Source of the DNA: Candidatus Omnitrophota bacterium
GTDB taxonomy: Bacteria; Omnitrophota; Gorgyraeia; Gygaellales; Profunditerraquicolaceae
Reading direction: 5' to 3'
Length of the DNA: 38,772 nt
Assembly: GCA_028718225.1 (NCBI GenBank)
Contig: JAQUMI010000009.1
Coordinates: 1 to 38,772 of the forward strand
Part shown: positions 13,980 through 27,159 of the stretch, one piece after another
Numbering within the stretch: position 1 is the stretch's first letter
Layout of the letters: each line of letters opens with the position of its first letter
Notes under the pieces: generated by a model
What the model was told of the DNA's origin: nothing
Seen by the model: the letters and a program-made list of their open reading frames with translations, nothing else
The model's database searches: none
Position numbers and translations under genes: made by a program

Positions 13980-14630
13980 TTAAAATACCCCCCTTATAAG
14001 CTGCAAGCCCATTATTATTATAATCAAGCCACAGATAGTCTTAAATAATTTCCTGTAATTGCTCTCCATACTTTTTAAGAACCCGGGCAGTAAACCGGCT
14101 AAAGCCACCAAAAGTAATAAGGGGGACAAGCAGGTACCTAAGCTGAAAGCAGTAATATACAGTAAATTCTCAAAGGCACTTTGCGCGGTTAAGCCGGCGT
14201 AAGTCAGTATAGTGATTAGCGGCGCGCAAGGCAAAATACCTATAGCCAGACCCAATATAATCAGGCTCTTACGGTCGTTTTCCAAAATCTTCCTCTGCAG
14301 AAAATTACAGGGGGCTAAGTTTAGGCTTTTACCTAAAAGCATAAGCATGCCGAGCAAGATGATAAATACCCCTGCTGTGATTGAGATGGGCCTGTAGAAA
14401 AAGGCAAGTTTTTCAAAGACTAATCTTCCGAATAAGAAGAAGAGCACCCCCAAGACTAAGTAGACAGATATCCTGGAGAGCGAAAATAACAGGTAAGCGC
14501 CTAGGCCTTTAAAAACATTTTTTTGGGTTCCGGCAACATAGGCCAGGATAAGCGGCCCGCAACTGGCCAGGCACGGCCCCCAGCCAAATGACAGGCCCAA
14601 GATAAAACTACTGGCTATCTTCTCAATCAT
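13980..14630 (-). CDS. DsbD/CcdA-like membrane thiol-redox protein (DsbD_2 / TauE-SafE type)
   Basis: This 216-residue protein has six predicted membrane helices. Cysteine C20 in the first helix (GWGPCLASCGP) and C135 in the fourth (GILPCAPLIT) match the redox-active pair of the DsbD transmembrane domain and CcdA, with C24, C108 and C167 extra. Such proteins carry electrons from cytoplasmic thioredoxin across the membrane to periplasmic thiol or metal-handling partners. No thioredoxin domain is attached. It overlaps the MEMO-AMMECR1 gene by 4 bases, which suggests it supplies reductant to that module. A heavy-metal transport role, as in other members of this broad family, is the alternative. 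Confidence 0.75.
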   Translation of the reverse strand: MIEKIASSFILGLSFGWGPCLASCGPLILAYVAGTQKNVFKGLGAYLLFSLSRISVYLVLGVLFFLFGRLVFEKLAFFYRPISITAGVFIILLGMLMLLGKSLNLAPCNFLQRKILENDRKSLIILGLAIGILPCAPLITILTYAGLTAQSAFENLLYITAFSLGTCLSPLLLLVALAGLLPGFLKSMESNYRKLFKTICGLIIIIMGLQLIRGVF

Positions 14631-16126
14631 TCTTTAAGCCCTTTTTCTGAAAATACTTCGGCAGTAAATGTATAAATCTCGGTAGCTTTATCCTTCCAGG
14701 CGTCCGCGGCCAGGCCGGCTTTATGCAGGCAGAGGTTGGACATAAATTCTTCTTTTGACCAGCCGGTTTCCGTAGCTACCTGAGGAAGGAATACGCCGCT
14801 GCGCAACCCTTTACGCACCAGGACACCATGCACTCCCAGTTGTATTTCATCAGGGTCAGCAATTTTTTCCATCGGTGATAAGACAGATATTTCAATATCG
14901 ACATCTTCTAGCCCTGATAAGCTGAGAGGGTTAAAGCGCGGGTCTTGCGTCGCCGCCTCAACCGCCATATCTCTAACCGTTAAATACAGAGGACCTGAGC
15001 CGACGAGGCTGCCGATACAACCGCGTAACTGGCCGCGCTCATTTAAAGTAACAAAAGCGCCCATAACCCTGTTTAAGAGAGGATCAGTCTGGCTTACCTC
15101 CAGTTTTTTACCTGTTTTTAAATAGGTTTCTATACTGTTACGCGCAATTGCAAGCAGTTTTTCCCTCTGAACATTATTCAACATATCCTTCTCCCTTTTT
15201 ATCTGAACAGGCCTAGCCTTTAGTGCATTAATGACGCAACTGGCGTATCCTACGGTCCAGATACCTTTTTTCTTATTGCCGGTAATCTGCGCTGAATCGG
15301 TATGCTCTAAAACCTTAACTTTATTATAGCCGAACTCTTGAGCCAAAATCAACGCAGTTACTACGCCAAAACCTCCGCACATCTGCATTGTTCCGTCGCG
15401 AAGGCCGTAATAAAGGCCTTCGCTGTCCATATTTTTTAGAGCGTCCAAGGTCAGCTCATCCGTTACCCCGGCTTCTTTATAATCGTAACCATGATACATA
15501 TCCGTAGAAACAACTACTAAAATATCTTTACGGCCTCCGATTGCGTCTTTAAGCAATGCCGCAAATTTTTTACAGGTATTCCAAGAACAATCACCCAAAA
15601 CTACAGGTACAATCTTAAAGCCAGTAAGCGTCTTTTGGAGAAACGGGAGCTGTACCTCAACACTATGCTCTTCTTTAAAAGCCTGCGGGATAAAGCTTAT
15701 TTCCGCCTCCTGGTTGAGCAGCTTGCGGGTAAAATCATTATCCACGCTTATCTCCCCCAGGGGAGTTTTAAATATACCTTCGGGATAGATTGACGCGCCG
15801 CTAAAAGGATAACGGTGGCTTGTTCCCAGAATAACCACCGTCTTATAGGGCCTGTCTTTAATAAGCTTGTAGGCAAAAGCAGCTACCTGTCCGGAATAGC
15901 CATAGCCGGCATGCGGAGCGATAATCGCAAATATCCGTTCGTCTACTTTTTCAGGACTGGCCTTTTCTAGGAATCCCTCAATCATTAAAGAGAGCTCACC
16001 GGAGCTTCCGGGATAAAAAGCCCCGGAGACACAGGGTTCTTTTACGCTGCCGGCATAACTGAAGGCATAAAATAAAAGAAATAAGATTAATACGCTAGTT
16101 CCATACGCCTGCGATTTTTTTCCCAC
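14627..16126 (-). CDS. Fused MEMO1 and AMMECR1 domain protein with signal peptide (AmmeMemoRadiSam B+A)
   Basis: This 499-residue protein joins two domains usually encoded separately. Residues about 8-25 form a signal peptide-like segment after MGKKS, ending FSYAGS. The MEMO domain (about 30-300) keeps H72 (APHAGYGYSG), H104 (GTSHRYPF) and C250 (QMCGG), the positions matching the metal site of human MEMO1. The AMMECR1 domain (about 320-495) keeps the invariant LRGCIG at 368-372. These proteins form a conserved but biochemically unsettled triad with a radical SAM enzyme, which lies just upstream and overlaps it by 32 bases. Confidence 0.88.
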   Translation of the reverse strand: MGKKSQAYGTSVLILFLLFYAFSYAGSVKEPCVSGAFYPGSSGELSLMIEGFLEKASPEKVDERIFAIIAPHAGYGYSGQVAAFAYKLIKDRPYKTVVILGTSHRYPFSGASIYPEGIFKTPLGEISVDNDFTRKLLNQEAEISFIPQAFKEEHSVEVQLPFLQKTLTGFKIVPVVLGDCSWNTCKKFAALLKDAIGGRKDILVVVSTDMYHGYDYKEAGVTDELTLDALKNMDSEGLYYGLRDGTMQMCGGFGVVTALILAQEFGYNKVKVLEHTDSAQITGNKKKGIWTVGYASCVINALKARPVQIKREKDMLNNVQREKLLAIARNSIETYLKTGKKLEVSQTDPLLNRVMGAFVTLNERGQLRGCIGSLVGSGPLYLTVRDMAVEAATQDPRFNPLSLSGLEDVDIEISVLSPMEKIADPDEIQLGVHGVLVRKGLRSGVFLPQVATETGWSKEEFMSNLCLHKAGLAADAWKDKATEIYTFTAEVFSEKGLKE

Positions 16127-17198
16127 AGAATTTACACCTTCCTTCTTTTAAATTATTCTGCACGATAAAATACCCCCTGCGCTCAATAACAATTTTTTTG
16201 CACCTGGGGCAATATGTGTTTTCCGCCGGATTAGCCGGAATATTGCCGATATAAACGTAATTTAATCCGCAATCGATAGCTATTTTCCTGGCCCGCTCAA
16301 GGGACTCTAACGGAGTTGGATTGAGGCTGGTTAGTTTGTACATCGGGAAGAATCTCGAGAAATGCAAGGGGGTATCCGGGCCTAAATTATCTTTAATCCA
16401 AAAGCACATCTTCTTTAGCCCGGAGGCATCATCGTTAAAACCGGAAAGCAGCAAAGTCGTTATTTCAATATGGACTCCCTCTTCTCGCAATATTTTTAAG
16501 GACTTCAATACCGGCTCAAGGCTCCCTTCAGTTAATTTAGCATAATATTCGTCGCTAAAGCCTTTTAGATCAATGTTGGCCGCATCAAGGTATTTAGCCA
16601 GAACCCGCAAAGGCTCCTCGTTGATATAGCCGTTTGAGTGCATAATATTCTTAATGCCCCTTTCCCGGGCCAGCCTGGCTATTTCCAGCATATATTCATA
16701 AAAAACAGTTGGCTCGCTATAAGTATAGGCGATTGTAGGAGACCCCGAGGCTTTAGCTTTTTCTACCAGTTCCAGCGGCTCAAGATACCGGTATTCTGCT
16801 TCTTCGGGCCGGCTTTGCGATATCTCCCAATTCTGGCAGAATTTACATTTCAGGTTACAGCCGGCAGTAGCCAGGGAATAGGCAGTCGTCGAAGGGAGAA
16901 AATGAAACAAGGGTTTCTTCTCTATGGGGTCAATATGTATGGCTACAGGCTTGGCATACACCAGAGTATACAAAACGCCGTTACGGTTTTGGCGCGTTCG
17001 GCAATAACCGCGCCGGCCTTCAGGAATTACGCAGCTCCGGGGGCAAAGCTGGCATTGAACAGTATTCCTATCCAGCTTTTGGTAAAACGCCGCCTCCTTT
17101 AATTGTTCGAGGCTATCTAGACCAGGAAGAAAAATACAGGGAATAAATAAAGAGAAAAGGAAAGCTATACCAAAAACCAACCTACCGACATTCTTCAT
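16095..17198 (-). CDS. AmmeMemoRadiSam system radical SAM enzyme with N-terminal hydrophobic segment
   Basis: This 367-residue protein carries the radical SAM cluster C114-x3-C118-x2-C121 (AGCNLKCKFCQNW), an N-terminal Cys set C49, C52, C56, C66 (CQLCPRSC, YCRTR) and a C-terminal pair of CxxC motifs that probably bind zinc. This layout matches the AmmeMemoRadiSam radical SAM family, related to pyruvate formate-lyase activating enzymes. Unusually, residues 7-26 are a hydrophobic stretch after a basic start (MKNVGR); family members often start near KEAAFYQKL (residue 34 here). No other ATG or clear ribosome-binding site supports a shorter start. The MEMO-AMMECR1 partner follows with a 32-base overlap. 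Confidence 0.88.
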   Translation of the reverse strand: MKNVGRLVFGIAFLFSLFIPCIFLPGLDSLEQLKEAAFYQKLDRNTVQCQLCPRSCVIPEGRRGYCRTRQNRNGVLYTLVYAKPVAIHIDPIEKKPLFHFLPSTTAYSLATAGCNLKCKFCQNWEISQSRPEEAEYRYLEPLELVEKAKASGSPTIAYTYSEPTVFYEYMLEIARLARERGIKNIMHSNGYINEEPLRVLAKYLDAANIDLKGFSDEYYAKLTEGSLEPVLKSLKILREEGVHIEITTLLLSGFNDDASGLKKMCFWIKDNLGPDTPLHFSRFFPMYKLTSLNPTPLESLERARKIAIDCGLNYVYIGNIPANPAENTYCPRCKKIVIERRGYFIVQNNLKEGRCKFCGKKIAGVWN

Positions 17199-17234
17199 AC
17201 TGCAATATTTTGGGCTTTTGTCGAAAAATTTAAG

Positions 17235-17307
17235 TGGAGCTGAGGAGGATCGAACTCCTGGCCTCCTCGTTGCGAACGAGGCGCTCTCCCAGCTGAGCTA
17301 CAGCCCC
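17235..17307 (-). tRNA. tRNA-Ala(CGC)
   Basis: The minus strand folds into a complete cloverleaf of 73 bases: acceptor GGGGCTG/CAGCTCC with the G3-U70 wobble pair that identifies alanine tRNAs, D arm GCTC/GAGC, anticodon stem CCTCG/CGAGG with loop TTCGCAA (anticodon CGC, codon GCG), T stem AGGAG/CTCCT with loop TTCGATC, and discriminator A. CCA is not encoded (CTT follows). It stands between the minor-pilin run and the radical SAM gene. Confidence 0.98.
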
Positions 17308-17365: not shown

Positions 17366-17965
17366 TCAATTAGTTGAAAGCGAAGGCAAAGTGAGGGTAG
17401 TAGACATGGCCATACCGGGGTTGCTGGAGGTATTGCAGGTCAGCGCAGGATCCCAGCAACCGGTAATAGTAACATTCATATAATTACCTTGCGAAAAATC
17501 TTTAGTAACGGAAAACGCCGTTATACCCTGAGCAAGTACCTCTTCGGTGCCGGAACATACGGCGCAGTCCGCATCGGCACATTGGTTGCAATAACTAAGG
17601 TCATGGCTGGTAGTATTAAGACTATACCTGATCCAATAATCACCTGCGTCCGGATTCCTCAAGCCATTGCCGTTAGTATCCGTAAAAAAGGATAAGGTAG
17701 TGGTATTGGTGGAGTCCGGGCTGATATATATGGTAGTATTCGACCCGTAAACTGTCTCGTTGCCTATTGAGTTGCCGGCACTTTTAGTTATATGCTCAAG
17801 GCTGCGCGAAACATCATTTTGCACTTTAGCCCGTTGGTCCGCAGAAACAAGATGGCGGCGGCTGAAGATATCGATATTATTAATACCCAAAATTATCACC
17901 GCCAGCAATATTACGGCAATCATTAACTCGATAAAAGTGACGGATTTTAAGCGGGAAAACATCAT
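17366..17965 (-). CDS. PilW-like minor pilin (prepilin)
   Basis: This 199-residue prepilin has the leader MMFSRLKS, cleavage probably S8/V9 followed by TFIELMIAV with Glu at mature position 5, and a hydrophobic helix to about residue 28. The larger globular part and the features SADQRAKVQNDVSRSLEHITKSA and YWIRYSL resemble PilW/GspJ-type minor pilins that prime assembly at the pilus tip. It overlaps the PilV-like gene by 4 bases. It contains a Cys-rich stretch CNQCADADCAVC that could hold metal or disulfides. Confidence 0.82.
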   Translation of the reverse strand: MMFSRLKSVTFIELMIAVILLAVIILGINNIDIFSRRHLVSADQRAKVQNDVSRSLEHITKSAGNSIGNETVYGSNTTIYISPDSTNTTTLSFFTDTNGNGLRNPDAGDYWIRYSLNTTSHDLSYCNQCADADCAVCSGTEEVLAQGITAFSVTKDFSQGNYMNVTITGCWDPALTCNTSSNPGMAMSTTLTLPSLSTN

Positions 17966-18306
17966 TCAGTCCAGTTAATTGCGGCTTTCACTTTCTTGAC
18001 GGTAGCGCCAGTAGTATTGTTCGAAAGGTTGCTAATCGTATAGACTACCGTATAACTGCCGTTAGTCGAATTAGCCAGCGAGTCAGTACCAAAACAATTG
18101 GAATCCCAGGTATCCTGCCGCACATAATACTGCAAAGGGTCAATAAACAGCTTGCTTATTTCTCCCGCACTCATGCGGTAACGGCTATGCTGGATAAGCT
18201 GCCGGCCTGAAATAAAAACATTAACCAGGCCGGTAATAACCAAAGCCAGTATCACCATTGAGATAATAATTTCCAGCAAGGTAAGGGCTTTTTTATTCAA
18301 GGGCAT
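17962..18306 (-). CDS. PilV/GspI-like minor pilin (prepilin)
   Basis: This 114-residue prepilin has leader MPLNKKA, cleavage A7/L8 followed by TLLEIIISMVILALVITG, with Glu at mature position 5. LTLLEI and its small size match GspI/PilV minor pilins. A single cysteine lies in the globular part. It overlaps the downstream PilW-like gene by 4 bases and follows the previous prepilin by 6 bases, placing both at the end of the prepilin run, as minor pilin pairs often occur. Confidence 0.82.
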   Translation of the reverse strand: MPLNKKALTLLEIIISMVILALVITGLVNVFISGRQLIQHSRYRMSAGEISKLFIDPLQYYVRQDTWDSNCFGTDSLANSTNGSYTVVYTISNLSNNTTGATVKKVKAAINWTE

Positions 18307-18312
18307 TCTGCT

Positions 18313-18738
18313 TTAAATACAATTCGCAGACGTAGAAAAATCTTTAGTATCAAAATCCGCGCTGGCTAAGCTATATATGCAGCTGCCGCTTTTAGCCGTG
18401 GCGGTAATATTAGCCGTCTTGGAACCTACGCTGCCGGCAGTCACAACGCCATAGGACCAATTTTCCGTATTTATTACGCTTTTTAACAGAGTGCCACAGC
18501 CTGAGGCGGCGACGCAGTCTGCTGAATTAGTGCAATTGCAATCCACATAATCGCCGTCTTTCATCCTTACTATCATTTCTCCCGTAGCAATAAGCTTAAT
18601 ATTAACAAGGCCCTCTTTTTGCACCATCTTTTGTTTGGATTTAGTATAGAGTGGAATTGCGGTGGCAGCAAGAACAATAACCACCACGACTATAATGGTG
18701 AGCTCAACTAAAGTAAAGGCACGTTCTTTTTTTCGCAT
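18313..18738 (-). CDS. Prepilin, paralogue 4 of the run
   Basis: I start this gene at ATG 18736-18738, giving 141 residues beginning MRKKERA/FTLVEL; a longer frame exists upstream but would overlap the neighbouring gene and bury the prepilin leader. Cleavage is A/F with Glu at position 5. Two cysteine pairs are visible, CNCTNSADCVAASGC in the middle and a C-terminal C-x19-C loop whose last Cys is followed by one Ile. The start lies 1 base after the preceding gene's stop. Confidence 0.85.
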   Translation of the reverse strand: MRKKERAFTLVELTIIVVVVIVLAATAIPLYTKSKQKMVQKEGLVNIKLIATGEMIVRMKDGDYVDCNCTNSADCVAASGCGTLLKSVINTENWSYGVVTAGSVGSKTANITATAKSGSCIYSLASADFDTKDFSTSANCI

Positions 18739-18739
18739 T

Positions 18740-19144
18740 CTATATGCAGCCCGCGCCTTTTGCAGGATCACCCGTAAAATTATCGCTGCTACTGATGGTA
18801 TACACGCACTCGCCCCTGGTCCCTTTGGCAGTGACCACGCCGGCAGCAGTAATCCCGTTATCAACAGAATAGGACCAATTCCTGTCGTTAAGTTTAAGCT
18901 TTAAATTGGAGTTCAAAAGCGTAGCCCCGGTCTCAGTACCGCTCAAAAACGGGTAATAAGCTGTCTGTTCTATCCTGTATAAACGTTCGGCAGCGGCAAT
19001 AAGCTTAAGATTGAAAACGACCTCCTTATTCAGTGCCCTATTCCTGGCTTTGTTATAATTGGGGATTGTGATCAAGGCAAGCGTAACAATAATGACAACC
19101 ACCGAAATGAGCTCGACTAGCGTGAAACCCTTATTTTTACTCAT
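18740..19144 (-). CDS. Prepilin, paralogue 3 of the run
   Basis: Started at ATG 19142-19144 this is a 134-residue prepilin with leader MSKNKG and cleavage G6/F7 (FTLVEL). An upstream extension to 19195 is possible but would place 17 extra residues before the leader and overlap the previous gene, so it is rejected. AIPNYNKARNRA-like residues (ITIPNYNKARN) follow the helix. The C terminus has a C-x19-C pair (GECVYTI ... GAGCI) nearly the same as in its downstream neighbour, so the two are probably a tandem duplication. Confidence 0.87.
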   Translation of the reverse strand: MSKNKGFTLVELISVVVIIVTLALITIPNYNKARNRALNKEVVFNLKLIAAAERLYRIEQTAYYPFLSGTETGATLLNSNLKLKLNDRNWSYSVDNGITAAGVVTAKGTRGECVYTISSSDNFTGDPAKGAGCI

Positions 19145-19145
19145 T

Positions 19146-19526
19146 TTAAGGACATGTTGGGGCTGACCCCGCACTCTTCTTGCCCCCGGAAACACACATA
19201 TAATAATTTACCGACCCGGCAGTAGCTATAGCCTGCACATATCCGCTGGCCACATTATTTAATGCTGTTGCAAAATTGAAATTGCTGCTTGACGGCGCAG
19301 AATCGTACCTGTCCAGGTTAGACCAGGTAGTAGTATAAGCGTCATACTCTGTAAAATAACCGGTCTCCGCAGAAGCAATATCCGCTAATACTGAATATGC
19401 TTCTGCAGAGCGCGCCTTCTCTAAAGCGCCGTAATACTTGACCAAAGCGACTCTCGCTAAGATAACGATAATCGCCACTACCACCATTAACTCTACCAGA
19501 GTAAAGGCGCACCTTTTCTTAAGCAT
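19146..19526 (-). CDS. Prepilin, paralogue 2 of the run
   Basis: This 126-residue prepilin has leader MLKKRCA and cleavage A7/F8 (FTLVELMVV), with Glu at position 5. The helix continues into KYYGALEKARSAEAYSVLADIASAE, similar to the first pilin of the run. It carries an unusual leader cysteine (C6) and a C-terminal C-x13-C pair ending with C-P. The stop is 1 base from the start of the next gene. Confidence 0.87.
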   Translation of the reverse strand: MLKKRCAFTLVELMVVVAIIVILARVALVKYYGALEKARSAEAYSVLADIASAETGYFTEYDAYTTTWSNLDRYDSAPSSSNFNFATALNNVASGYVQAIATAGSVNYYMCVSGGKKSAGSAPTCP

Positions 19527-19559
19527 ATCTTATTTTATTAATCCCGTACTTTAATATCC

Positions 19560-19958
19560 TTAAGCGCAGCCTGTACCGCTTGAGCCGGTTGCGCCGGTAG
19601 ATACATTCATGGTGTAAGTACAACCTCCGGCCCCGCTCTTATTTGTAGCTGTAATATTGGTAGTAGCAGTGTAGGTATAAGTAAAATTATTGGAAATTGG
19701 TATAGATACTACCATTACAGCGTCACCATCAATGGTTACCGTAATAGCAGTGGAATCGCCAGGATAAACCGCATTAGCTGCATAGTAGCCGAGAATTCCT
19801 TCCCTGATTGAACGCATAGTAGAATATGCCTCAGCTTTTCTGGCCTTTTCAATATTGGCAAAATACCGCGGGATAGCCACGAGTGCCAAGATTCCTATGA
19901 TTACTACTACGATGATTAACTCAATTAGGGTAAAAGCCCTCTCCATCCTTTTCTTCAT
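19560..19958 (-). CDS. Type IV pilin, likely major subunit of the run
   Basis: This 132-residue prepilin has leader MKKRMERA and cleavage A8/F9 (FTLIELIIVV), then VAIPRYFANIEKARKAEAYSTMRSI, a typical pilin helix. The C-terminal loop is bounded by cysteines 19 positions apart, the last followed by Ala. An excellent ribosome-binding site, AAAAGGAGG at 19966-19974, is 7 bases from the ATG, the strongest among the pilin genes. It is first after the assembly genes. Being the main subunit is inferred from this site and position. Confidence 0.87.
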   Translation of the reverse strand: MKKRMERAFTLIELIIVVVIIGILALVAIPRYFANIEKARKAEAYSTMRSIREGILGYYAANAVYPGDSTAITVTIDGDAVMVVSIPISNNFTYTYTATTNITATNKSGAGGCTYTMNVSTGATGSSGTGCA

Positions 19959-20052
19959 CCTTCTTCCTCCTTTTCTCCTAGCTCAGTCTTGTTTATCCTG
20001 TTTTTCTTCTATACGCTATGTTAATACATTTTTTTAAAAAAAACAAGCTTTT
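19959..20052 (-). other. AT-rich spacer between assembly genes and pilin genes
   Basis: This 94-base gap is the longest within the pilus block. It contains a run of T8 and A7 on the minus strand (about 20029-20043) beside AAAAAAGC/GTTTTTTT, which can pair only weakly, and a strong ribosome-binding site near its end. No convincing promoter boxes are seen. It could allow a different pilin transcript level, for example by processing. Confidence 0.35.
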
Positions 20053-21297
20053 TTATCTACCGCCTATCTGAGAAATTTCAAATATAGGCAGGAACATGCC
20101 GATGACCATTATGCCGATTACTGCCCCGATAAAAACAAGCATTATAGGTTCAAACATGGAAACAATCCGGGTTAGGAACGTTTCCAGGTACTCCTGGTAG
20201 AATGTATCCAGCCGCTTAAACATACTGGATAATTCGCCGATCTCCTCTCCGATATTAATCATCTGCACAGCCATCGGGTCAAAGAAATTACTTTTCTCCA
20301 AAGCTTGCCCCAGAGGCTTGCCTACACGTACGTCATCTTTAATATTGCGTATAATATCCCCTAGGACAAGGTTGTCTACGCTGCGCTCGGAAATCTCTAA
20401 AGAGTAGAGTATCGGCACGCCACTCTCTACCAGGGTAGACATTTCAGAAGTAAAACGTTCAATAACTAAAGTGCGGAAAAATTCCCCGAAACCGGGCATC
20501 TTCAAAAGAAACCCTTCAAACCTCTTCCTGCCTTCCCGGGTCGAAATATACCTGCGGATAAGCCAGAAGCCTATAACTAAGGCAGCAATAATAATTAAGG
20601 AATACCCCCGGATAAACTTGCTCGTCTCTACCAGGATAACGGTTAGAAGAGGCAGTTTGATATTAAAACCGCTGAATATATTGGCAAAGGTAGGGACTAT
20701 TTTAACCGTCATAAATAAAAGCGCGGATATACCTGCTATTAAAAGTATCGCTGGATAAATCAGGGCCGATATAATCTTCTTTTTAAAGGCCCCGTATCTT
20801 TCCAGGTAAGCTGCCAGGCGCGAGAGGACAACCGCCAGGTTACCGCTGGCCTCACCGCTCTCTACCAGATGAATCCAGAACTCCGAAAAGATATTGGAAT
20901 GCTTGGACATGGCGTCATGGAAACTTAATCCTGCTTCCATATTCTTTTCCAAGTCTTTGATTACCCCTTGCAGGCGCCTGCTGGAAACCTGATTGGAGAT
21001 TATGTCCAGGCTCCTTAAAATAGTCACGCCTGCGCCAAGAAGCGTGGCTAACTGACGGCAGAAAAGGGTCAAATCCTGCGAAGTAATCCGGTTATACCTA
21101 GGTTTAAATTTACCCTTAAATACTTCCGGGGCATTAGGGGAAACTGCGGCGCCTTTACTATCTTCACCGGTAACACTCACCACCAGAAGGTCCTTCGATT
21201 GCAGCCGGCTGACTATTTCATCCTGGCTTACACCTTCTTCAACCCCGTTAACTTTTGTCCCGGCTTTATTCCTGGCAACGTAAAAATATTTAGGCAT
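20053..21297 (-). CDS. pilC: Type II secretion/type IV pilus platform protein (PilC/GspF)
   Basis: This 414-residue inner-membrane protein is the rotor-like platform under the pilus. Two T2SSF repeats are seen, about 80-205 (FCRQLATLLGAGVTILRSLD, then FHDAMSKHSNIFSEFWIHLV) and about 285-407 (FTSEMSTLVESGVPILYSLE). Three transmembrane helices lie near 182-204, 232-252 and 385-405. An N-terminal ARNKAGTKVNGVEEG segment is typical. Its ATG overlaps the ATPase gene stop by 1 base (TAATG). The name PilC is used by context; GspF is equally defensible. Confidence 0.93.
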   Translation of the reverse strand: MPKYFYVARNKAGTKVNGVEEGVSQDEIVSRLQSKDLLVVSVTGEDSKGAAVSPNAPEVFKGKFKPRYNRITSQDLTLFCRQLATLLGAGVTILRSLDIISNQVSSRRLQGVIKDLEKNMEAGLSFHDAMSKHSNIFSEFWIHLVESGEASGNLAVVLSRLAAYLERYGAFKKKIISALIYPAILLIAGISALLFMTVKIVPTFANIFSGFNIKLPLLTVILVETSKFIRGYSLIIIAALVIGFWLIRRYISTREGRKRFEGFLLKMPGFGEFFRTLVIERFTSEMSTLVESGVPILYSLEISERSVDNLVLGDIIRNIKDDVRVGKPLGQALEKSNFFDPMAVQMINIGEEIGELSSMFKRLDTFYQEYLETFLTRIVSMFEPIMLVFIGAVIGIMVIGMFLPIFEISQIGGR

Positions 21298-23030
21298 TAT
21301 TCTGATCCTAAGGTAATTAAAAGCGCATCTTCCAGGGAAGTCGAACCTTCCTCAACTTTCTTTAACGCAGATTCATATAAAGTCTGCATGCCATTAGCCC
21401 TGGCTGCTTCCTTTATCTTATAGAGCGGTTCTTTCTGGCTTATTAAACTTTTTATCTCTTCGTTGGTAATCATAATTTCGGAGATGCACATCCTCCCCTT
21501 ATAACCGGTATTATTGCAGGCTGCACAGCCCTTAGCCCGGTAAATCAATTCCGCTTTTAATTTTATATTCTTGAGCTCTGTTGTGTTCGGCTCGTAGGCC
21601 TCTTTGCAATCCGGGCATAATTTCCTCACCAGGCGTTGGGCAATTACCGATACCAGAGAAGATGAGATCATATAGGGCTCAACGCCAATATCCATAAGCC
21701 GGCTTACCGCCGTAGGCGCATCATTAGTATGCAAGGTACTTAAAACCAAGTGGCCGGTCAAAGCAGAGCGTATGCATATCTGGGAGGTCTCTAAGTCACG
21801 CACCTCGCCGACGAGCATTATATCCGGGTCCTGCCTCAAGAAGCTGCGCAAGGCCGCGGCAAAAGTCAAGCCTATTTCGGGTTTAATCTGGACCTGATTA
21901 ATTCCTTCTAGCTTATACTCTACGGGGTCTTCAATAGTAACAATATTCTTACTGGGGCTCTTGATTTCATTTAATATGGCATACAAGGTAGTGGTCTTAC
22001 CGCTTCCGGTTGGCCCGGTCAGGAATATCAACCCATAAGGAGTAACAATACTTTTACGGATAAGTTCCAGTTGTTTAGAGTCAAAACCTAACTGATTTAA
22101 ATCCAGGACTACCTGGCTGCGGTCGAGTAAACGCATAGCTACTTTCTCGCCGTATATTGTGGGTATGCTGGAAACACGGATATCTATGGGCTTGTCTCCG
22201 ATTTTCACTAAAAACGCGCCATCCTGAGGCAGGCGTTTTTCGGCAATATCCAGCTTGGACAAAATCTTAATACGTGAAACAATCGGCAGGTGCAAGTGCT
22301 TTGCCGGAGGAGGTATTTCGTATAATTTCCCGTCAATGCGGTATCTTAAAGATATTTTGTCTTTAAACGGCTCAATATGGATATCCGAGGCGCGCTCATC
22401 AATTGCCTGCCGGATAATCAAATCCACTAGTTTTACTACCGGTGCTTCTTCTGCCCGGGCAACTAATTTATCCAAACTCAATTCCTGGTCAGCGTTGGCT
22501 TCTGCTACTGCGGCTTCAGAAGTCAATTCAGCGGGAGAGACGTCATAACTGGCTTCTACTGCCTGCTTCAACATTGCGGATTTACCGTAAAAACCCTCAA
22601 TCGCCTTAAGGATATCGGATTTAGTAGCTATCACCGGATTAATCTTACAGTTAGTCAACCTTCCTAGATTATCAATGAGTATTAAATCCAGCGGGTCTGA
22701 CATAGCTACGGTCAAAGAGCGTAAAGTGCGCGATAAAGGAAGGACAGAATTCTTTATGGCAAAGTCGTGCGGGATAAGCCGCTCAAGGCCCTGGTCCATT
22801 GCCGGCTTAAGCATGCCCGTAACAAAAGAGAAATACGGAACATTAAGTTGTTTACCCAGGACTGCTACCATCTGGTCTTCTTTGACCATACCCAGCTTGA
22901 TTAAAGCCTCGCCCAGCCGTCCCCCTTCCTGGCGCTGGGAGGCAACTGCCTGCTCTAACTGGGCTTCAGTAATCAGGCCTTCCTTGACCAGTAATTCGCC
23001 TAATTTCAGGTATTTGTCTTTATTCAACAT
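21297..23030 (-). CDS. pilB: Type IV pilus extension ATPase (PilB/GspE)
   Basis: This 577-residue ATPase powers subunit polymerisation. It has an N-terminal T2SSE-N domain (LGELLVKEGLIT, LGMVKEDQM), then the motor core with Walker A GPTGSGKT at 339-346, the Asp box, Walker B DIMLVGEVRD at 403-412, and the His box HLVLSTLHTND. Two CxxC pairs, C472/C475 and C502/C505, form the zinc site found in PilB and many GspE proteins. No PilT retraction motor is encoded in the window, so a type II secretion-like pseudopilus remains possible. Confidence 0.94.
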   Translation of the reverse strand: MLNKDKYLKLGELLVKEGLITEAQLEQAVASQRQEGGRLGEALIKLGMVKEDQMVAVLGKQLNVPYFSFVTGMLKPAMDQGLERLIPHDFAIKNSVLPLSRTLRSLTVAMSDPLDLILIDNLGRLTNCKINPVIATKSDILKAIEGFYGKSAMLKQAVEASYDVSPAELTSEAAVAEANADQELSLDKLVARAEEAPVVKLVDLIIRQAIDERASDIHIEPFKDKISLRYRIDGKLYEIPPPAKHLHLPIVSRIKILSKLDIAEKRLPQDGAFLVKIGDKPIDIRVSSIPTIYGEKVAMRLLDRSQVVLDLNQLGFDSKQLELIRKSIVTPYGLIFLTGPTGSGKTTTLYAILNEIKSPSKNIVTIEDPVEYKLEGINQVQIKPEIGLTFAAALRSFLRQDPDIMLVGEVRDLETSQICIRSALTGHLVLSTLHTNDAPTAVSRLMDIGVEPYMISSSLVSVIAQRLVRKLCPDCKEAYEPNTTELKNIKLKAELIYRAKGCAACNNTGYKGRMCISEIMITNEEIKSLISQKEPLYKIKEAARANGMQTLYESALKKVEEGSTSLEDALLITLGSE

Positions 23031-23043
23031 GGATAAAAATAAT

Positions 23044-24612
23044 TTAGCGCTTTATCTCAAAATTATTCAAGTAGGCGCTGATACTCTGTTGCCGCGTAAG
23101 CGCAATGGCCCGAGTTTGCTCTCTTAACGGCAGGGCTGCTTTTTTAACCGGGACTGAACTGGATTTTGTATGTTTTATAATATGCGGGGTGATAAAAACC
23201 AGCAACTCGCGCTCAATATTCGGGCTGACGTTTTTGTGTCTGAACAAGGCGCCTAATACGGGAATATCTCCCAGGAAAGGAAGTTTGGTTATGACTGTTG
23301 ACTGCTGGTTACGGATCAAGCCTCCGAGGACAATTGTCTCTCCGTCACGCACGCGCACAACATTCTTGGTACTGCGCGTTTCGGGGTTAACAAAAGTATA
23401 GGTCTTGGTCGTATCGCTGCCGGCGGCAAATGACGACTTGGTTGAAGAGGCCTCCGTAACCTGAGGATAAATAAACATGGTTATCTCTCCGGATTCCAAA
23501 TCAATCTGGGGGGTCACCCGCAATGAAACCCCGGTTTCATACCTCTCTGCGGTTACGGTGGTCGAAGAAGATGTGCCTGTCCCCTGCTGGACGCTGCTTA
23601 CGCCGATAGCCTCATCAGTAGTAATTTTGATTTCGGCAGTCTCGTTATTTAACGTAAGGATCCTGGGCCGGGCAAGAAATTTAGTATCGGTCTGTGTCCT
23701 TAAAAAATCCAGTTGGATATTATAAATACTTGTGCCGTTATTGCCGGTACTGATATCTATTGTTCCGGGGGTGATAGCCTTGGTAAAATCTTTATTGGAA
23801 TACATACCTGATGAAAAAGGGAATGCGCTGCTGATGCTCGCGCCTGTCCAAGCCATACTAAAAGGAGTTTGCCCGAATTTAAAACCTATGGTATCCACTA
23901 TGCTTTTATTCACATCCAACATTTCTACTTCCAGCATAACTTCCGGGACAGGGACATCCAAAGAGGCAATGACTCGGGCGATGACCTCCATCCGGCTGGG
24001 TATATCCGTAACCGTAATACTGTTAGTACGAAAGTCTTCAATTAGCGAACCATCCTTGCTTAAAAGCTTCTTCACAACCTCAGTAAGGCCCGCTTCTGAA
24101 GCGGCCTTCCATTTACCGCTTTCTGAATCGCTGCTCGAATCGCCTGATGAAGATGAGCTGCTCGAGCTACCCTCGCTGCTTAAATTATTTTTCATCTCTT
24201 CCTTCAGCTGAGAAGAAGAAACAGTGGCATATTTCAGGTAAAAAACTCTTGTCACTGTCTGCGTTGTCGGCTTTCCCCAGTCATTCACGATGAAAACGCT
24301 GGCTTCCTGGTCTAAATCATAGGAAAGGTTGTTGGCTTTAAATATCTTATCCATTGCTTCCTGCAAAGGCACTTGATCCATATAGAGGGTCATTTTTCTG
24401 TCCTGGACTGCCTCAGAAGCGATGAAATTCAGGCCTGACTGGATAGACAGAAGCTTCAAAATGTCCTTTAGGGAAGCATCCTGCAGGTCCATAGATATAG
24501 ATATATTTTTATATGCCGATAAGGGCGGCCCCTCTAACGCGCTTAATTTAGGGATCAAAGTAAGGTTAAACAAGGCAAAGATAAAAACGAATGACCTGAA
24601 ATTAATCTTCAT
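23044..24612 (-). CDS. Outer-membrane secretin (PilQ/GspD family)
   Basis: This 522-residue protein has a signal peptide ending near ALEG (residue 27), an STN domain (about 38-110) and a single secretin N-domain (about 120-225), then the beta-barrel secretin domain with the signature VRDGETIVLGGLI followed by LPFLGDIPVLG and LLVFITPHII. The N-domain contains a serine-rich loop at 145-166, rich in Ser, Asp and Gly. Only two N-domains make it short. A secretin proves a diderm envelope. Gene order after the PilP-like protein matches PilMNOPQ. Confidence 0.93.
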   Translation of the reverse strand: MKINFRSFVFIFALFNLTLIPKLSALEGPPLSAYKNISISMDLQDASLKDILKLLSIQSGLNFIASEAVQDRKMTLYMDQVPLQEAMDKIFKANNLSYDLDQEASVFIVNDWGKPTTQTVTRVFYLKYATVSSSQLKEEMKNNLSSEGSSSSSSSSGDSSSDSESGKWKAASEAGLTEVVKKLLSKDGSLIEDFRTNSITVTDIPSRMEVIARVIASLDVPVPEVMLEVEMLDVNKSIVDTIGFKFGQTPFSMAWTGASISSAFPFSSGMYSNKDFTKAITPGTIDISTGNNGTSIYNIQLDFLRTQTDTKFLARPRILTLNNETAEIKITTDEAIGVSSVQQGTGTSSSTTVTAERYETGVSLRVTPQIDLESGEITMFIYPQVTEASSTKSSFAAGSDTTKTYTFVNPETRSTKNVVRVRDGETIVLGGLIRNQQSTVITKLPFLGDIPVLGALFRHKNVSPNIERELLVFITPHIIKHTKSSSVPVKKAALPLREQTRAIALTRQQSISAYLNNFEIKR

Positions 24613-24624
24613 AACTTCCTCCTT

Positions 24625-25086
24625 TTATTTTGCTGCTGGTTGCTGACCACTGACAACCGAGGGGGACAAAATATATTCCTGATTGGCAAAAACTACGGTT
24701 ACACCCTCTTTGCCTATTTCTATAATCCTGGCCTCCCCCAACATATCGCCTTTTTTTACTACCTGGTTATTTACAATTGCCTGCGGGAAAACCCCTCCCC
24801 AGACTACACCTTGCACCGTAAAATTAGGAAGCACCTTATCTGGCTCCGGAACAGCCGCTGCGCTAATTTTTTTCTCCGTAACCAACGGTTGAAAAGGGTC
24901 CCTTGAGCCTTGCGCCTTATATTCTACTTTAGGGCGATTAATCAACCGCTGCTGGCCCGGGCTATTTTTTTCCGGCATTTTAGAATCCGTTTGGGCTGCC
25001 CTTAAAGGCCTGGCATAACACACTCCCATTATTAATAAAGCTGTCCAAAAAATCATTAAACCAGGAAGCTTTTCCATTTTTATCAT
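24625..25086 (-). CDS. PilP/GspC-like periplasmic assembly protein
   Basis: This 153-residue protein has an N-terminal hydrophobic segment (about 8-24), a linker, then RDPFQPLV (63-70) and a beta-rich domain with VQGVVWGG, PQAIVNNQVVKKGD and VTVVFANQEYILS, the hallmarks of PilP and of the HR domain of GspC, which link the inner-membrane complex to the secretin. The ATG at 25084-25086 shares one base with the PilO stop; MEKLPG three residues in is another possible start. Confidence 0.78.
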   Translation of the reverse strand: MIKMEKLPGLMIFWTALLIMGVCYARPLRAAQTDSKMPEKNSPGQQRLINRPKVEYKAQGSRDPFQPLVTEKKISAAAVPEPDKVLPNFTVQGVVWGGVFPQAIVNNQVVKKGDMLGEARIIEIGKEGVTVVFANQEYILSPSVVSGQQPAAK

Positions 25087-25604
25087 CAGTTTGTAGCGCT
25101 AACAGAGCTTATTTTTAGGTTAGCCGTCAACCCTTTCCCGCCCAGTCCGGATTGAGGGCTTATACCAATATTATCTATCGTGTAAACATTGCTGGAAGAT
25201 TCCACTCCGCTGATAAACCTGGAGAGAGCGTCATAGCTGGGCGCGTTAACACTTACATCAAAAACATCTTTAATATAATCCCCTCCCGGTAATTCCTTGC
25301 GGGGAGGCTTAACGGATAAAACCTCCACTCCTACACTCTTGGCGATATCGTTGATATTGCCCATAACCAGGCTCGCTTCTTTCTTGGTGAGTAATTTCTT
25401 GTACCCCTTAATGCGACTTTCCAGCTGATTTATCTTCAGCAATTCACCGCTCTTTTTATCTTCTTCGCTAATCTTGGCTTTCAGGGATTCAATCCGGGTC
25501 AGGCTGCCTTTATAGATGTTGCCGGCAACAATCAAAAAGACGAGAATCATTCCGATGTTCACAGCCTTGTTCCTATATTTATCAATTAATTCTGTCCGGT
25601 TCAT
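25086..25604 (-). CDS. PilO/GspM-like inner-membrane alignment protein
   Basis: This 172-residue protein has one transmembrane helix (about 18-33), a coiled coil (about 38-75, SRIESLKAKISEEDKK and ESRIKGYKKLLTKKEA) and a ferredoxin-like domain with VFDVSVNAPSYDALSRFISGVESSSNVYTIDNIGIS, the PilO/GspM pattern. It pairs with the PilN part of the upstream fusion and with the PilP-like protein downstream to form the periplasmic alignment complex. It begins 10 bases after the PilM-PilN gene. Confidence 0.82.
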   Translation of the reverse strand: MNRTELIDKYRNKAVNIGMILVFLIVAGNIYKGSLTRIESLKAKISEEDKKSGELLKINQLESRIKGYKKLLTKKEASLVMGNINDIAKSVGVEVLSVKPPRKELPGGDYIKDVFDVSVNAPSYDALSRFISGVESSSNVYTIDNIGISPQSGLGGKGLTANLKISSVSATN

Positions 25605-25614
25605 ATTATTCTTT

Positions 25615-27159
25615 CTATTGTTTAGCCTTACTGGAAATCACAAAAGTAGTTACCCGGTTACCCGCAAATGAACCTTGATCTAGAGATACTTTTATATCTT
25701 TGAAATAGCCGGTAAATACAGGGTTGTTATTTAAATTACTAAAAAACTTATTTACTGCCTGGAATTCATTATTGCCGTTATTCAGATAAGACACACCTTC
25801 TAAGATAAGCTCGGCGCCGCCCCCTTCTTTTTTATCCAAAGAAATCCTGGTAAGCCATACTCCCGGAGGAAGGGCGCCCGGGATAATATTCAATATTTCC
25901 GTAACATATAGCTGTTTATTAACCAGGTTATCTAAATTAACTATAGCCTTTCTATCTTTTAGGCTGGTTGCCCGAAGCGCTTCGTAGCTTGTATTCGGGC
26001 TGAGGCTGGTAAGTTTGGACCATTTGCTGGTTAGCTTACCCAGTTCTTTTTTCAGGGAAACTTCCCTGGAGGTCCCATAAATTAAAGCAGCGGCACAAAC
26101 CAATACCCCCACGATAATAATACGAAAATCTAGTTTTATTTTATTAAAGAAATTCTTTAATTCCAGCTGTATCCTCGCACTATCTACCTTACCCCCTCTT
26201 AATTTACTTTCAACTAAGTTGAGCCTTACCTTGATACCCACCTTTCTGGAGATGGCTATACTGTAGCTCTTCGTAAAACTCGAAGAAAAGGCCATGGGGC
26301 TGCCGACGGTCTTGGCAATATCAATAAACTTACCGGACAGGCCCAATTCAGTCAGGAATACTTCGATTTCCTGCCGCTGTTCCGCATTAGACATGACAAA
26401 TATATTTTTTAAGGATTTCGAAGGAAACTTACGGTGATAATAATCTAATGACACGCGGATCTCTGATTTCAATTTCTCCATAGAAAACGCAGGCGCAGAT
26501 GGCTCCAGGTCGTCAAAATCACTCACCGGGACGCTGCCTAAACTGATATCGCGGTTAAATAGAGGGAAACCATTTTCTAAAACCAAGAAATTAATCTCAT
26601 CGACCCCTTGGGAATCAAAACAGAGAACGGCCGTTATGCCGCTTTCATTCAACTTGACTAACTTTAACATCCTTAAGATACTGAATCCGGAATACTCTAT
26701 AGAGCTTATCCTGATATTCAACGGTTTAAGGATGGAAATATATTTATCAAAGGTCTCCTTTTTGATACCCATAAAAAGGACGATATTTGCCCGGCTGGCC
26801 CTATCTACCTCCACTTGATAATCTGTGATCAGCTCTTCGATTTTAAAAGGTATATATTTTTTGGCTTCAAAGTTTATGGCATTCTTTAATTCATCTCTGG
26901 GTAGTATAGGGATCTCGAAGGTCCGGATAATCAGGTCTTTCCCCGAAAGGCAAAGCATTGCTTCCTTAACCTCAATTTTATTCCTTCTAAAGGCTTCATT
27001 AAAAGAAGCGGCTAACTTTACCTCAGCAGGCACCTTCTCATCCAGCTCATTACCGCCAACCTCGGAAAAAGGTATCTGAATGCTACTGACCAGCTTATTC
27101 CCCCTGGTTTCAGAAACATCAATAACCTTCGGCCCGAAATATACCCCTAGATCGCTCAT
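25615..27159 (-). CDS. PilM-PilN fusion (GspL-like) assembly protein
   Basis: This 514-residue protein carries two partners of the pilus inner-membrane complex in one chain. Residues 1-308 are PilM-like, an actin-fold cytoplasmic domain (LGVYFGP, FEIPILPRDELKNAINFEAKKYIPF, SLDYYHRKFP). Then comes a PilN-like segment: VRLNLVESKLR (311-321, like the INLLP motif through which PilN binds PilM), a transmembrane helix (346-363), a coiled coil and a ferredoxin-like domain to the end. T2SS GspL has the same layout. There is no stop or frameshift between the parts. Its ATG overlaps the HTH gene stop (ATGA). Confidence 0.85.
   Translation of the reverse strand: MSDLGVYFGPKVIDVSETRGNKLVSSIQIPFSEVGGNELDEKVPAEVKLAASFNEAFRRNKIEVKEAMLCLSGKDLIIRTFEIPILPRDELKNAINFEAKKYIPFKIEELITDYQVEVDRASRANIVLFMGIKKETFDKYISILKPLNIRISSIEYSGFSILRMLKLVKLNESGITAVLCFDSQGVDEINFLVLENGFPLFNRDISLGSVPVSDFDDLEPSAPAFSMEKLKSEIRVSLDYYHRKFPSKSLKNIFVMSNAEQRQEIEVFLTELGLSGKFIDIAKTVGSPMAFSSSFTKSYSIAISRKVGIKVRLNLVESKLRGGKVDSARIQLELKNFFNKIKLDFRIIIVGVLVCAAALIYGTSREVSLKKELGKLTSKWSKLTSLSPNTSYEALRATSLKDRKAIVNLDNLVNKQLYVTEILNIIPGALPPGVWLTRISLDKKEGGGAELILEGVSYLNNGNNEFQAVNKFFSNLNNNPVFTGYFKDIKVSLDQGSFAGNRVTTFVISSKAKQ

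What the first reader, a model, noticed from the sequence alone, without database searches (positions are those of the whole stretch)
13980..17198. Apparently extracytoplasmic AmmeMemoRadiSam module with a DsbD-like partner
Three overlapping genes encode a radical SAM enzyme, a fused MEMO-AMMECR1 protein and a DsbD/CcdA-like six-helix membrane protein. Both of the first two carry N-terminal hydrophobic segments after a basic start (radical SAM residues 7-26; fusion residues about 8-25). The MEMO metal-site residues (H72, H104, C250) and the AMMECR1 LRGCIG motif are intact. If exported, a radical SAM enzyme outside the cytoplasm would be very unusual, because it needs SAM and reductant; a DsbD-like protein could supply electrons across the membrane. 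The alternative is membrane tethering with the enzyme facing inward. The basis is visible sequence plus family knowledge; the joint role is inferred.
Basis: partly seen in the sequence, partly recalled or inferred. Interest (0 to 1): 0.72.

Follow-up and report, generated by a model that had tools for sequence, protein, structure and literature searches.

The report
Radical-SAM enzyme exported from the cytoplasm
This gene trio appears to encode a radical enzyme of a class only described inside cells (as far as I know), together with its partner proteins, carrying signals that send them outside the cytoplasm, and close relatives in many bacterial phyla carry the same kinds of export signals, so it may be the first radical-SAM chemistry known to happen outside the cytoplasm.

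Summary
The window (probably Omnitrophota) encodes an AmmeMemoRadiSam radical-SAM enzyme, a MEMO-AMMECR1 fusion and a DsbD_2 membrane protein as overlapping genes. In the radical-SAM gene no usable start codon lies beyond the hydrophobic segment, so that segment must be translated. Comparative evidence strongly supports export. Of 139 homologues, 104 carry an export signal: 60 Tat-type, 43 Sec-type, 1 fused to DsbD_2. Tat and Sec signals replace one another repeatedly on the tree, while the exported/non-exported state changes only five times. The exported enzyme lies beside tatC or inside a tatA-tatC cluster in some relatives. One relative is a DsbD_2-radical-SAM fusion with the enzyme predicted outside. 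Twelve homologues add a conserved CXXCH (heme c-like) motif. MEMO-AMMECR1 fusions carry Sec or lipoprotein signals; the paralogous stand-alone MEMO and second radical-SAM enzyme in the same genomes do not. All eleven conserved cysteines are kept. DsbD_2 goes almost only with Sec-type enzymes (32/43, against 1/60 Tat), and the window genome has no detectable TatC. I therefore favour DsbD_2 as a thiol reductant for a Sec-exported, cysteine-rich enzyme over direct supply of electrons for SAM cleavage. Substrate, SAM source and activity outside are unproven.

The parts
16095..17198 (-). Radical-SAM enzyme of the AmmeMemoRadiSam family with N-terminal export segment
   Evidence: TIGR04337 380 bits; AF2 pLDDT 92 with isolated N-terminal helix 2-22; Foldseek best hit PFL activating enzyme 3cb8
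17112..17198 (-). Codons 1-29 of the radical-SAM gene: basic start, hydrophobic core (residues 8-26) and possible signal-peptidase site (LDS|LEQ)
   Evidence: cleavage site is my reading, not run through SignalP
17001..17054 (-). N-terminal cysteine motif C49 C52 C56 C66
   Evidence: invariant in exported and non-exported homologues
16836..16859 (-). Radical-SAM CX3CX2C motif (C114, C118, C121)
16125..16211 (-). C-terminal cysteine motif C330 C333 C355 C358
   Evidence: 96-99% conserved among 104 exported homologues
14627..16126 (-). MEMO-AMMECR1 fusion with signal peptide
   Evidence: TIGR04336 and TIGR04335 over cut-off; human MEMO1 and AMMECR1 structures matched
16052..16126 (-). Signal peptide of the MEMO-AMMECR1 fusion (residues 1-25, SYA|G)
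   Evidence: 25/25 fused homologues in the order have one; 0/21 stand-alone MEMOs do
16137..16145 (-). Shine-Dalgarno-like GAAGGAAGG before the fusion's GTG start
15230..16042 (-). MEMO domain (H72, H104, C250)
14651..15160 (-). AMMECR1 domain (LRGCIG), the only AMMECR1 found in this genome
13980..14630 (-). DsbD_2 (CcdA/DsbD-like) membrane protein, invariant C20, C24, C135
   Evidence: PF13386 84.5 bits; alignment A2; positive-inside N-out/C-out in 16/16

Best explanation
This is the extracytoplasmic form of the AmmeMemoRadiSam system. The radical-SAM enzyme and the MEMO-AMMECR1 fusion are made with N-terminal signals and work on the outer face of the cytoplasmic membrane. In lineages with Tat the enzyme is exported folded, presumably with its [4Fe-4S] cluster. 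In Tat-less lineages such as this one it uses a Sec-type signal or signal anchor, and the co-encoded DsbD_2 protein passes thiol electrons outward, keeping its many cysteines reduced so that the cluster can form or persist. The exported enzyme then does SAM-dependent radical chemistry, of the PFL-activase kind, on an unknown extracytoplasmic substrate handled with MEMO-AMMECR1. Shown by sequence: signals, their interchange, partners, conserved catalytic residues. Inferred: export itself (about 0.9), radical catalysis outside (about 0.6), DsbD_2 as thiol reductant of the enzyme (about 0.45). Unknown: SAM source, low-potential donor, substrate.
For: 104 of 139 homologues have an export segment and 35 do not. 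Tat motifs such as SRREFLK are matched by the Tat signal models TIGR01409 (13 of 60 members) and PF10518 (12 of 60). No Tat model appears among the hits of the 43 Sec-type N-termini in NCBIfam (Pfam was run on the Tat set only). Tat and Sec interchange with at least 8-9 supported switches, while exported/non-exported changes 5 times on the tree. The enzyme lies next to tatC (L058, L060, L063) and between tatA and tatC (L064). In relatives TatC is found in 11/13 genomes with Tat-type and 1/24 with Sec-type enzymes (Fisher 1e-6). L168 is a DsbD_2-radical-SAM fusion (Pfam) with 12 positive charges on one loop face and 0 on the face carrying the enzyme. A conserved CXXCH follows the Tat signal in 12 homologues. 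MEMO-AMMECR1 partners carry Sec or lipoprotein signals, against signal-free stand-alone MEMOs in the same genomes. 46 of 63 columns conserved in non-exported enzymes are at least 95% conserved in exported ones, including all 11 conserved Cys. DsbD_2 lies nearby in 32/43 Sec-type against 1/60 Tat-type loci.
Against: No experimental localisation. SignalP and DeepTMHMM were not available; signals were called by hydropathy, motif and eye. The window's own radical-SAM segment has no twin arginines, no lipobox and only a weak cleavage site, so it may be an uncleaved anchor. Sec export of a [4Fe-4S] enzyme would need cluster assembly outside, for which no machinery is known to me. No source of SAM or low-potential electrons outside was identified. 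The DsbD_2-Sec association is not significant after phylogenetic pairing (about 3 pairs for, 0.1 against, p about 0.25). Eleven Sec-type loci lack an adjacent DsbD_2.
Confidence: 0.7

Rival explanations
1. The N-terminal segments are membrane tethers and the catalytic domains face the cytoplasm.
For: The window's radical-SAM segment has no clear cleavage motif; SAM, ferredoxin and cluster assembly are cytoplasmic (established knowledge).
Against: Tat-type signals in 60 homologues with tat gene neighbours; clear signal-peptidase or lipobox sites in the fusion partner; basic N-termini and acidic C-flanks predict C-out; the DsbD_2 fusion puts the enzyme on the low-charge outer face; CXXCH motifs behind Tat signals.
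Confidence: 0.08
2. The enzyme is exported, but the DsbD_2 protein (sometimes with NapH-like ferredoxin proteins or heme c) is the transmembrane route for the electrons that drive SAM cleavage.
For: Direct gene fusion L168; NapH-like Fer4_5 proteins in L066, L067 and L069; a weak, non-significant fold similarity of the DsbD_2 model to RnfA/NqrE.
Against: DsbD_2 is near only 1 of 60 Tat-type enzymes; thiol potentials are too high for SAM cleavage (established knowledge); the fold match is not significant (E 0.15).
Confidence: 0.2
3. The exported proteins have lost radical chemistry and use the cluster or cysteines for something else, such as metal binding, electron transfer or a stress role.
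For: No SAM or low-potential donor is known outside; MEMO1 has been reported as a metal (copper/iron) binder (my recollection, not checked). No tool result here favours it directly.
Against: The SAM-binding and cluster residues are conserved as in cytoplasmic paralogues and the model keeps the PFL-activase fold.
Confidence: 0.2
4. Artefact: mis-called starts, chimeric MAG contigs or chance hydrophobic codons.
For: Most sequences are MAGs; starts are predicted.
Against: No alternative start past the segment in the window gene; the segment recurs in 104 homologues from more than 15 phyla and in the isolate Mangrovibacterium marinum DSM 28823; the paralogues lack it.
Confidence: 0.02

Closest known systems
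AmmeMemoRadiSam system (TIGR04335/04336/04337)
   Same: All three components over curated cut-offs, encoded together.
   Different: The NCBI models do not separate exported from cytoplasmic members; here enzyme and MEMO-AMMECR1 carry export signals, MEMO and AMMECR1 are fused, and a DsbD_2 protein is added. A signal-free enzyme and a stand-alone MEMO remain elsewhere in the genome.
Pyruvate formate-lyase activating enzyme (3c8f/3cb8)
   Same: Closest solved structure by sequence profile and fold; CX3CX2C cluster.
   Different: Far below the PFLA cut-off (54.8 against 231.75 bits); extra N- and C-terminal cysteine motifs; no formate-lyase partner; PFL-AE is cytoplasmic.
CcdA/DsbD transmembrane thiol relays in cytochrome c maturation
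   Same: PF13386 match, Cys in TM1 and TM4, N-out/C-out topology; there too a Sec-exported apoprotein needs reduced cysteines.
   Different: A third invariant Cys (CX3C in TM1); partner is a radical-SAM enzyme rather than CcmG or apocytochrome; fold match to solved CcdA not seen.
Tat-exported iron-sulfur proteins (for example hydrogenase small subunits, DMSO-reductase family)
   Same: Twin-arginine signal on an iron-sulfur enzyme in the Tat-type relatives.
   Different: None of those is a radical-SAM enzyme (my knowledge); the window's own copy is Sec-type and its genome has no detectable TatC.

Membership tests
AmmeMemoRadiSam system | Radical-SAM enzyme over TIGR04337 cut-off | tested here: met
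   380 bits against 220
AmmeMemoRadiSam system | MEMO and AMMECR1 partners over cut-off, encoded nearby | tested here: met
   252/26 and 184/99 bits, one fused overlapping gene
Radical-SAM superfamily | CX3CX2C cluster motif and TIM-barrel fold | tested here: met
Radical-SAM superfamily | Reductive cleavage of SAM to 5'-deoxyadenosyl radical | not testable with these tools
   needs biochemistry
Extracytoplasmic (exported) protein | Hydrophobic signal segment at a well-supported start | tested here: met
   location itself not tested
Tat substrate | Twin-arginine motif (window copy) | tested here: not met
   MKNVGRLVFGIAFLF has none; met in 60 homologues
Tat substrate | TatC in the same genome (window) | tested here: not met
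   no match in an 83% complete genome
CcdA/DsbD family | DsbD_2 Pfam match and redox cysteines in TM1 and TM4 | tested here: met
CcdA/DsbD family | Fold of solved CcdA/DsbD | tested here: inconclusive
   model pLDDT 74, no significant PDB match
PFL activating enzymes | Over TIGR02493/02494 cut-off | tested here: not met
   54.8/231.75 and 54.7/174.35 bits

The most novel reading that the evidence does not exclude
A phylum-spanning family of radical-SAM enzymes works outside the cytoplasm, so SAM, an intact [4Fe-4S] cluster and a low-potential electron route must be available there. Export uses either Tat (folded) or Sec plus a dedicated DsbD_2 reductant, and some members carry their own heme c.
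Probability: 0.55. Interest if true: 0.92.

Novelty: new variant of a known kind. Interest (0 to 1): 0.82.

Why it matters
To my knowledge radical-SAM enzymes are treated as cytoplasmic, because SAM, reductant and cluster assembly are there, and no paper in the searched library describes an exported one. If these are active outside, the field needs a source of extracytoplasmic SAM and strong reductant, and possibly cluster assembly outside the cell. The uncharacterised MEMO and AMMECR1 proteins, conserved up to humans, would gain a setting in which substrate classes can be tested. The paralogue pairs (exported and not) in single genomes make it directly testable.

Tried and rejected
Burroughs 2019 (JBC) on MEMO/AMMECR1 is not held. 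The short-start artefact was rejected. A lipoprotein reading of the window's enzyme was rejected: C21 is not in a lipobox and the Cys is not conserved, although several MEMO partners look like lipoproteins. PDB sequence search for the DsbD_2 protein found nothing and fold search nothing significant. Automatic positive-inside scoring was unreliable, so TM limits were set by hand. A role for the neighbouring type IV pilin genes or for RsmE/MtaB was considered; the synteny is conserved in many relatives of the order but was not seen outside it, and a tRNA-Ala separates the pilins, so I leave them out. The membrane spermidine-synthase-like protein (K6) was considered as a core part: it is a frequent neighbour elsewhere but was not found in this genome.

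Full report
What is there. On the minus strand, 17198..13980, three overlapping genes encode a TIGR04337 radical-SAM enzyme, a MEMO-AMMECR1 fusion (TIGR04336 + TIGR04335) and a DsbD_2 membrane protein. The enzyme gene has no start codon past the segment until well into the domain, and the fusion gene has a single GTG start behind a good Shine-Dalgarno sequence, so both segments are translated. The genome is probably Omnitrophota: contigs of named Omnitrophota MAGs match relatives of the window by sequence and length. It is 1.04 Mb and 83% complete.

Internal controls. The same genome holds a second TIGR04337 enzyme, 44% identical, that starts directly at the domain (MKEAFLYEKL), and a stand-alone MEMO on another contig. 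In relatives, 21 of 21 stand-alone MEMOs read have no signal, while 25 of 25 MEMO-AMMECR1 fusions have a hydrophobic segment, nearly all with a small-residue cleavage site just before the domain (two of these, L049 and L052, judged by eye from the printed sequence). The only AMMECR1 found in the window's genome is the signal-bearing fusion. So each genome tends to keep a signal-free set and a signal-bearing set side by side.

Two routes, one destination. Homologues in the order and in other phyla show either Sec-like segments or clear twin-arginine signals (SRREFLK, ITRREFIKK, NRRKFLY). Independent Tat models (TIGR01409, PF10518) are the top families for the Tat-type N-termini, and no Tat model is among the NCBIfam hits of the Sec-type ones. 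On a tree built without the signal region, Tat and Sec change places many times while exported/non-exported changes five times. Two unrelated signals replacing each other is hard to explain unless export itself is selected. In relatives, Tat-type enzymes sit in genomes with TatC (11/13) and Sec-type in genomes without (23/24) (Fisher 1e-6; not corrected for shared ancestry), and some Tat-type genes lie beside tatC or between tatA and tatC. Signals were classified by a script with a few corrections by eye; one row (L069, 5780) is ambiguous.

Further signs of an outside location. L168 (Lentisphaeria MAG) is one polypeptide: DsbD_2 then radical-SAM enzyme. Its loops carry 12 positive charges on one face and none on the face of the termini, so the enzyme should be outside (TM limits set by hand); the 16 stand-alone DsbD_2 proteins show the same N-out/C-out bias. 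Twelve Tat-type enzymes related to L136 have a conserved CXXCH motif before the domain; c-type heme is attached only outside the cytoplasm (established knowledge), but heme binding is not shown here. Several MEMO-AMMECR1 partners have lipoprotein-like signals.

The enzyme looks intact. All eleven conserved cysteines and most other residues conserved in non-exported enzymes are kept among 104 exported ones. The AlphaFold model is confident (pLDDT 92), with the N-terminal helix separate from the barrel, and the nearest solved fold is PFL activating enzyme, in line with the sequence profile.

The DsbD_2 protein. It is near 32 of 43 Sec-type enzymes, 1 of 60 Tat-type and 0 of 35 non-exported, plus the fusion. 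Its C20, C24 and C135 are invariant in 16 sequences. The raw association is strong (Fisher 4e-16) but phylogenetically paired counts are few and not significant. I read it as a thiol reductant needed when the cysteine-rich enzyme travels unfolded through Sec, by analogy with CcdA/DsbD and apocytochrome c. That is inference.

What is not known. No localisation or activity was measured. The substrate, the source of SAM and the low-potential donor are unknown. A membrane protein with a spermidine-synthase-like domain (K6) is a frequent neighbour outside the window's close relatives, lacks the usual GGGDG motif, and could bind SAM or a relative of it; this is a lead only. Literature searches in the held library found no exported radical-SAM enzyme, but most subscription papers are missing from it, so novelty is to my knowledge only.

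Noticed in passing
L050:1543-3678, L063:8099-10348, L169:1308-3791 and others: A membrane protein with a spermine-synthase-like domain (PF01564; PRK03612-like) is next to exported radical-SAM genes in many phyla, often MEMO-AMMECR1, K6, radical SAM in that order; its usual GGGDG motif is altered.
   Followed up: partly
L136, L125, L141, L207-L215: Tat-type radical-SAM enzymes with a conserved CXXCH motif and a distal His between signal and domain.
   Followed up: partly
L168:6185-8011: DsbD_2 and radical-SAM enzyme fused in one polypeptide (Lentisphaeria MAG).
   Followed up: yes
L235: The sequence before a radical-SAM domain reads like the C-terminus of AMMECR1 (WTFTAEAW) in one open frame, a possible AMMECR1-radical-SAM fusion without a signal.
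   Followed up: no
L058:3435-5703, L063:5831-8102, L069:1048-10777: Tandem exported radical-SAM paralogues (two or three copies) in one locus; L069 also has a lipoprotein-like copy and a NapH-like ferredoxin protein.
   Followed up: no
L066:4175-8159, L067:5796-11851: Exported radical-SAM gene with K6, DsbD_2 and a NapH-like polyferredoxin in one run; thioredoxin gene nearby.
   Followed up: no
window 17366-27159: Type IV pilin/secretion gene cluster upstream, same strand, separated from the trio by tRNA-Ala (17234-17307); this order is kept in many relatives of the order.
   Followed up: partly
L002/L073, around the second radical-SAM gene of the window's genome: The signal-free paralogue sits between a HAD-type phosphatase-like gene and an ATP-pyrophosphatase (ThiI-like) gene, not with MEMO or DsbD_2.
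   Followed up: no
G084:C21:17322-19628 and G110:C39:2223-4529: About 810-residue open frames in which the radical-SAM match is split by several hundred residues; possible insertion or fusion.
   Followed up: no
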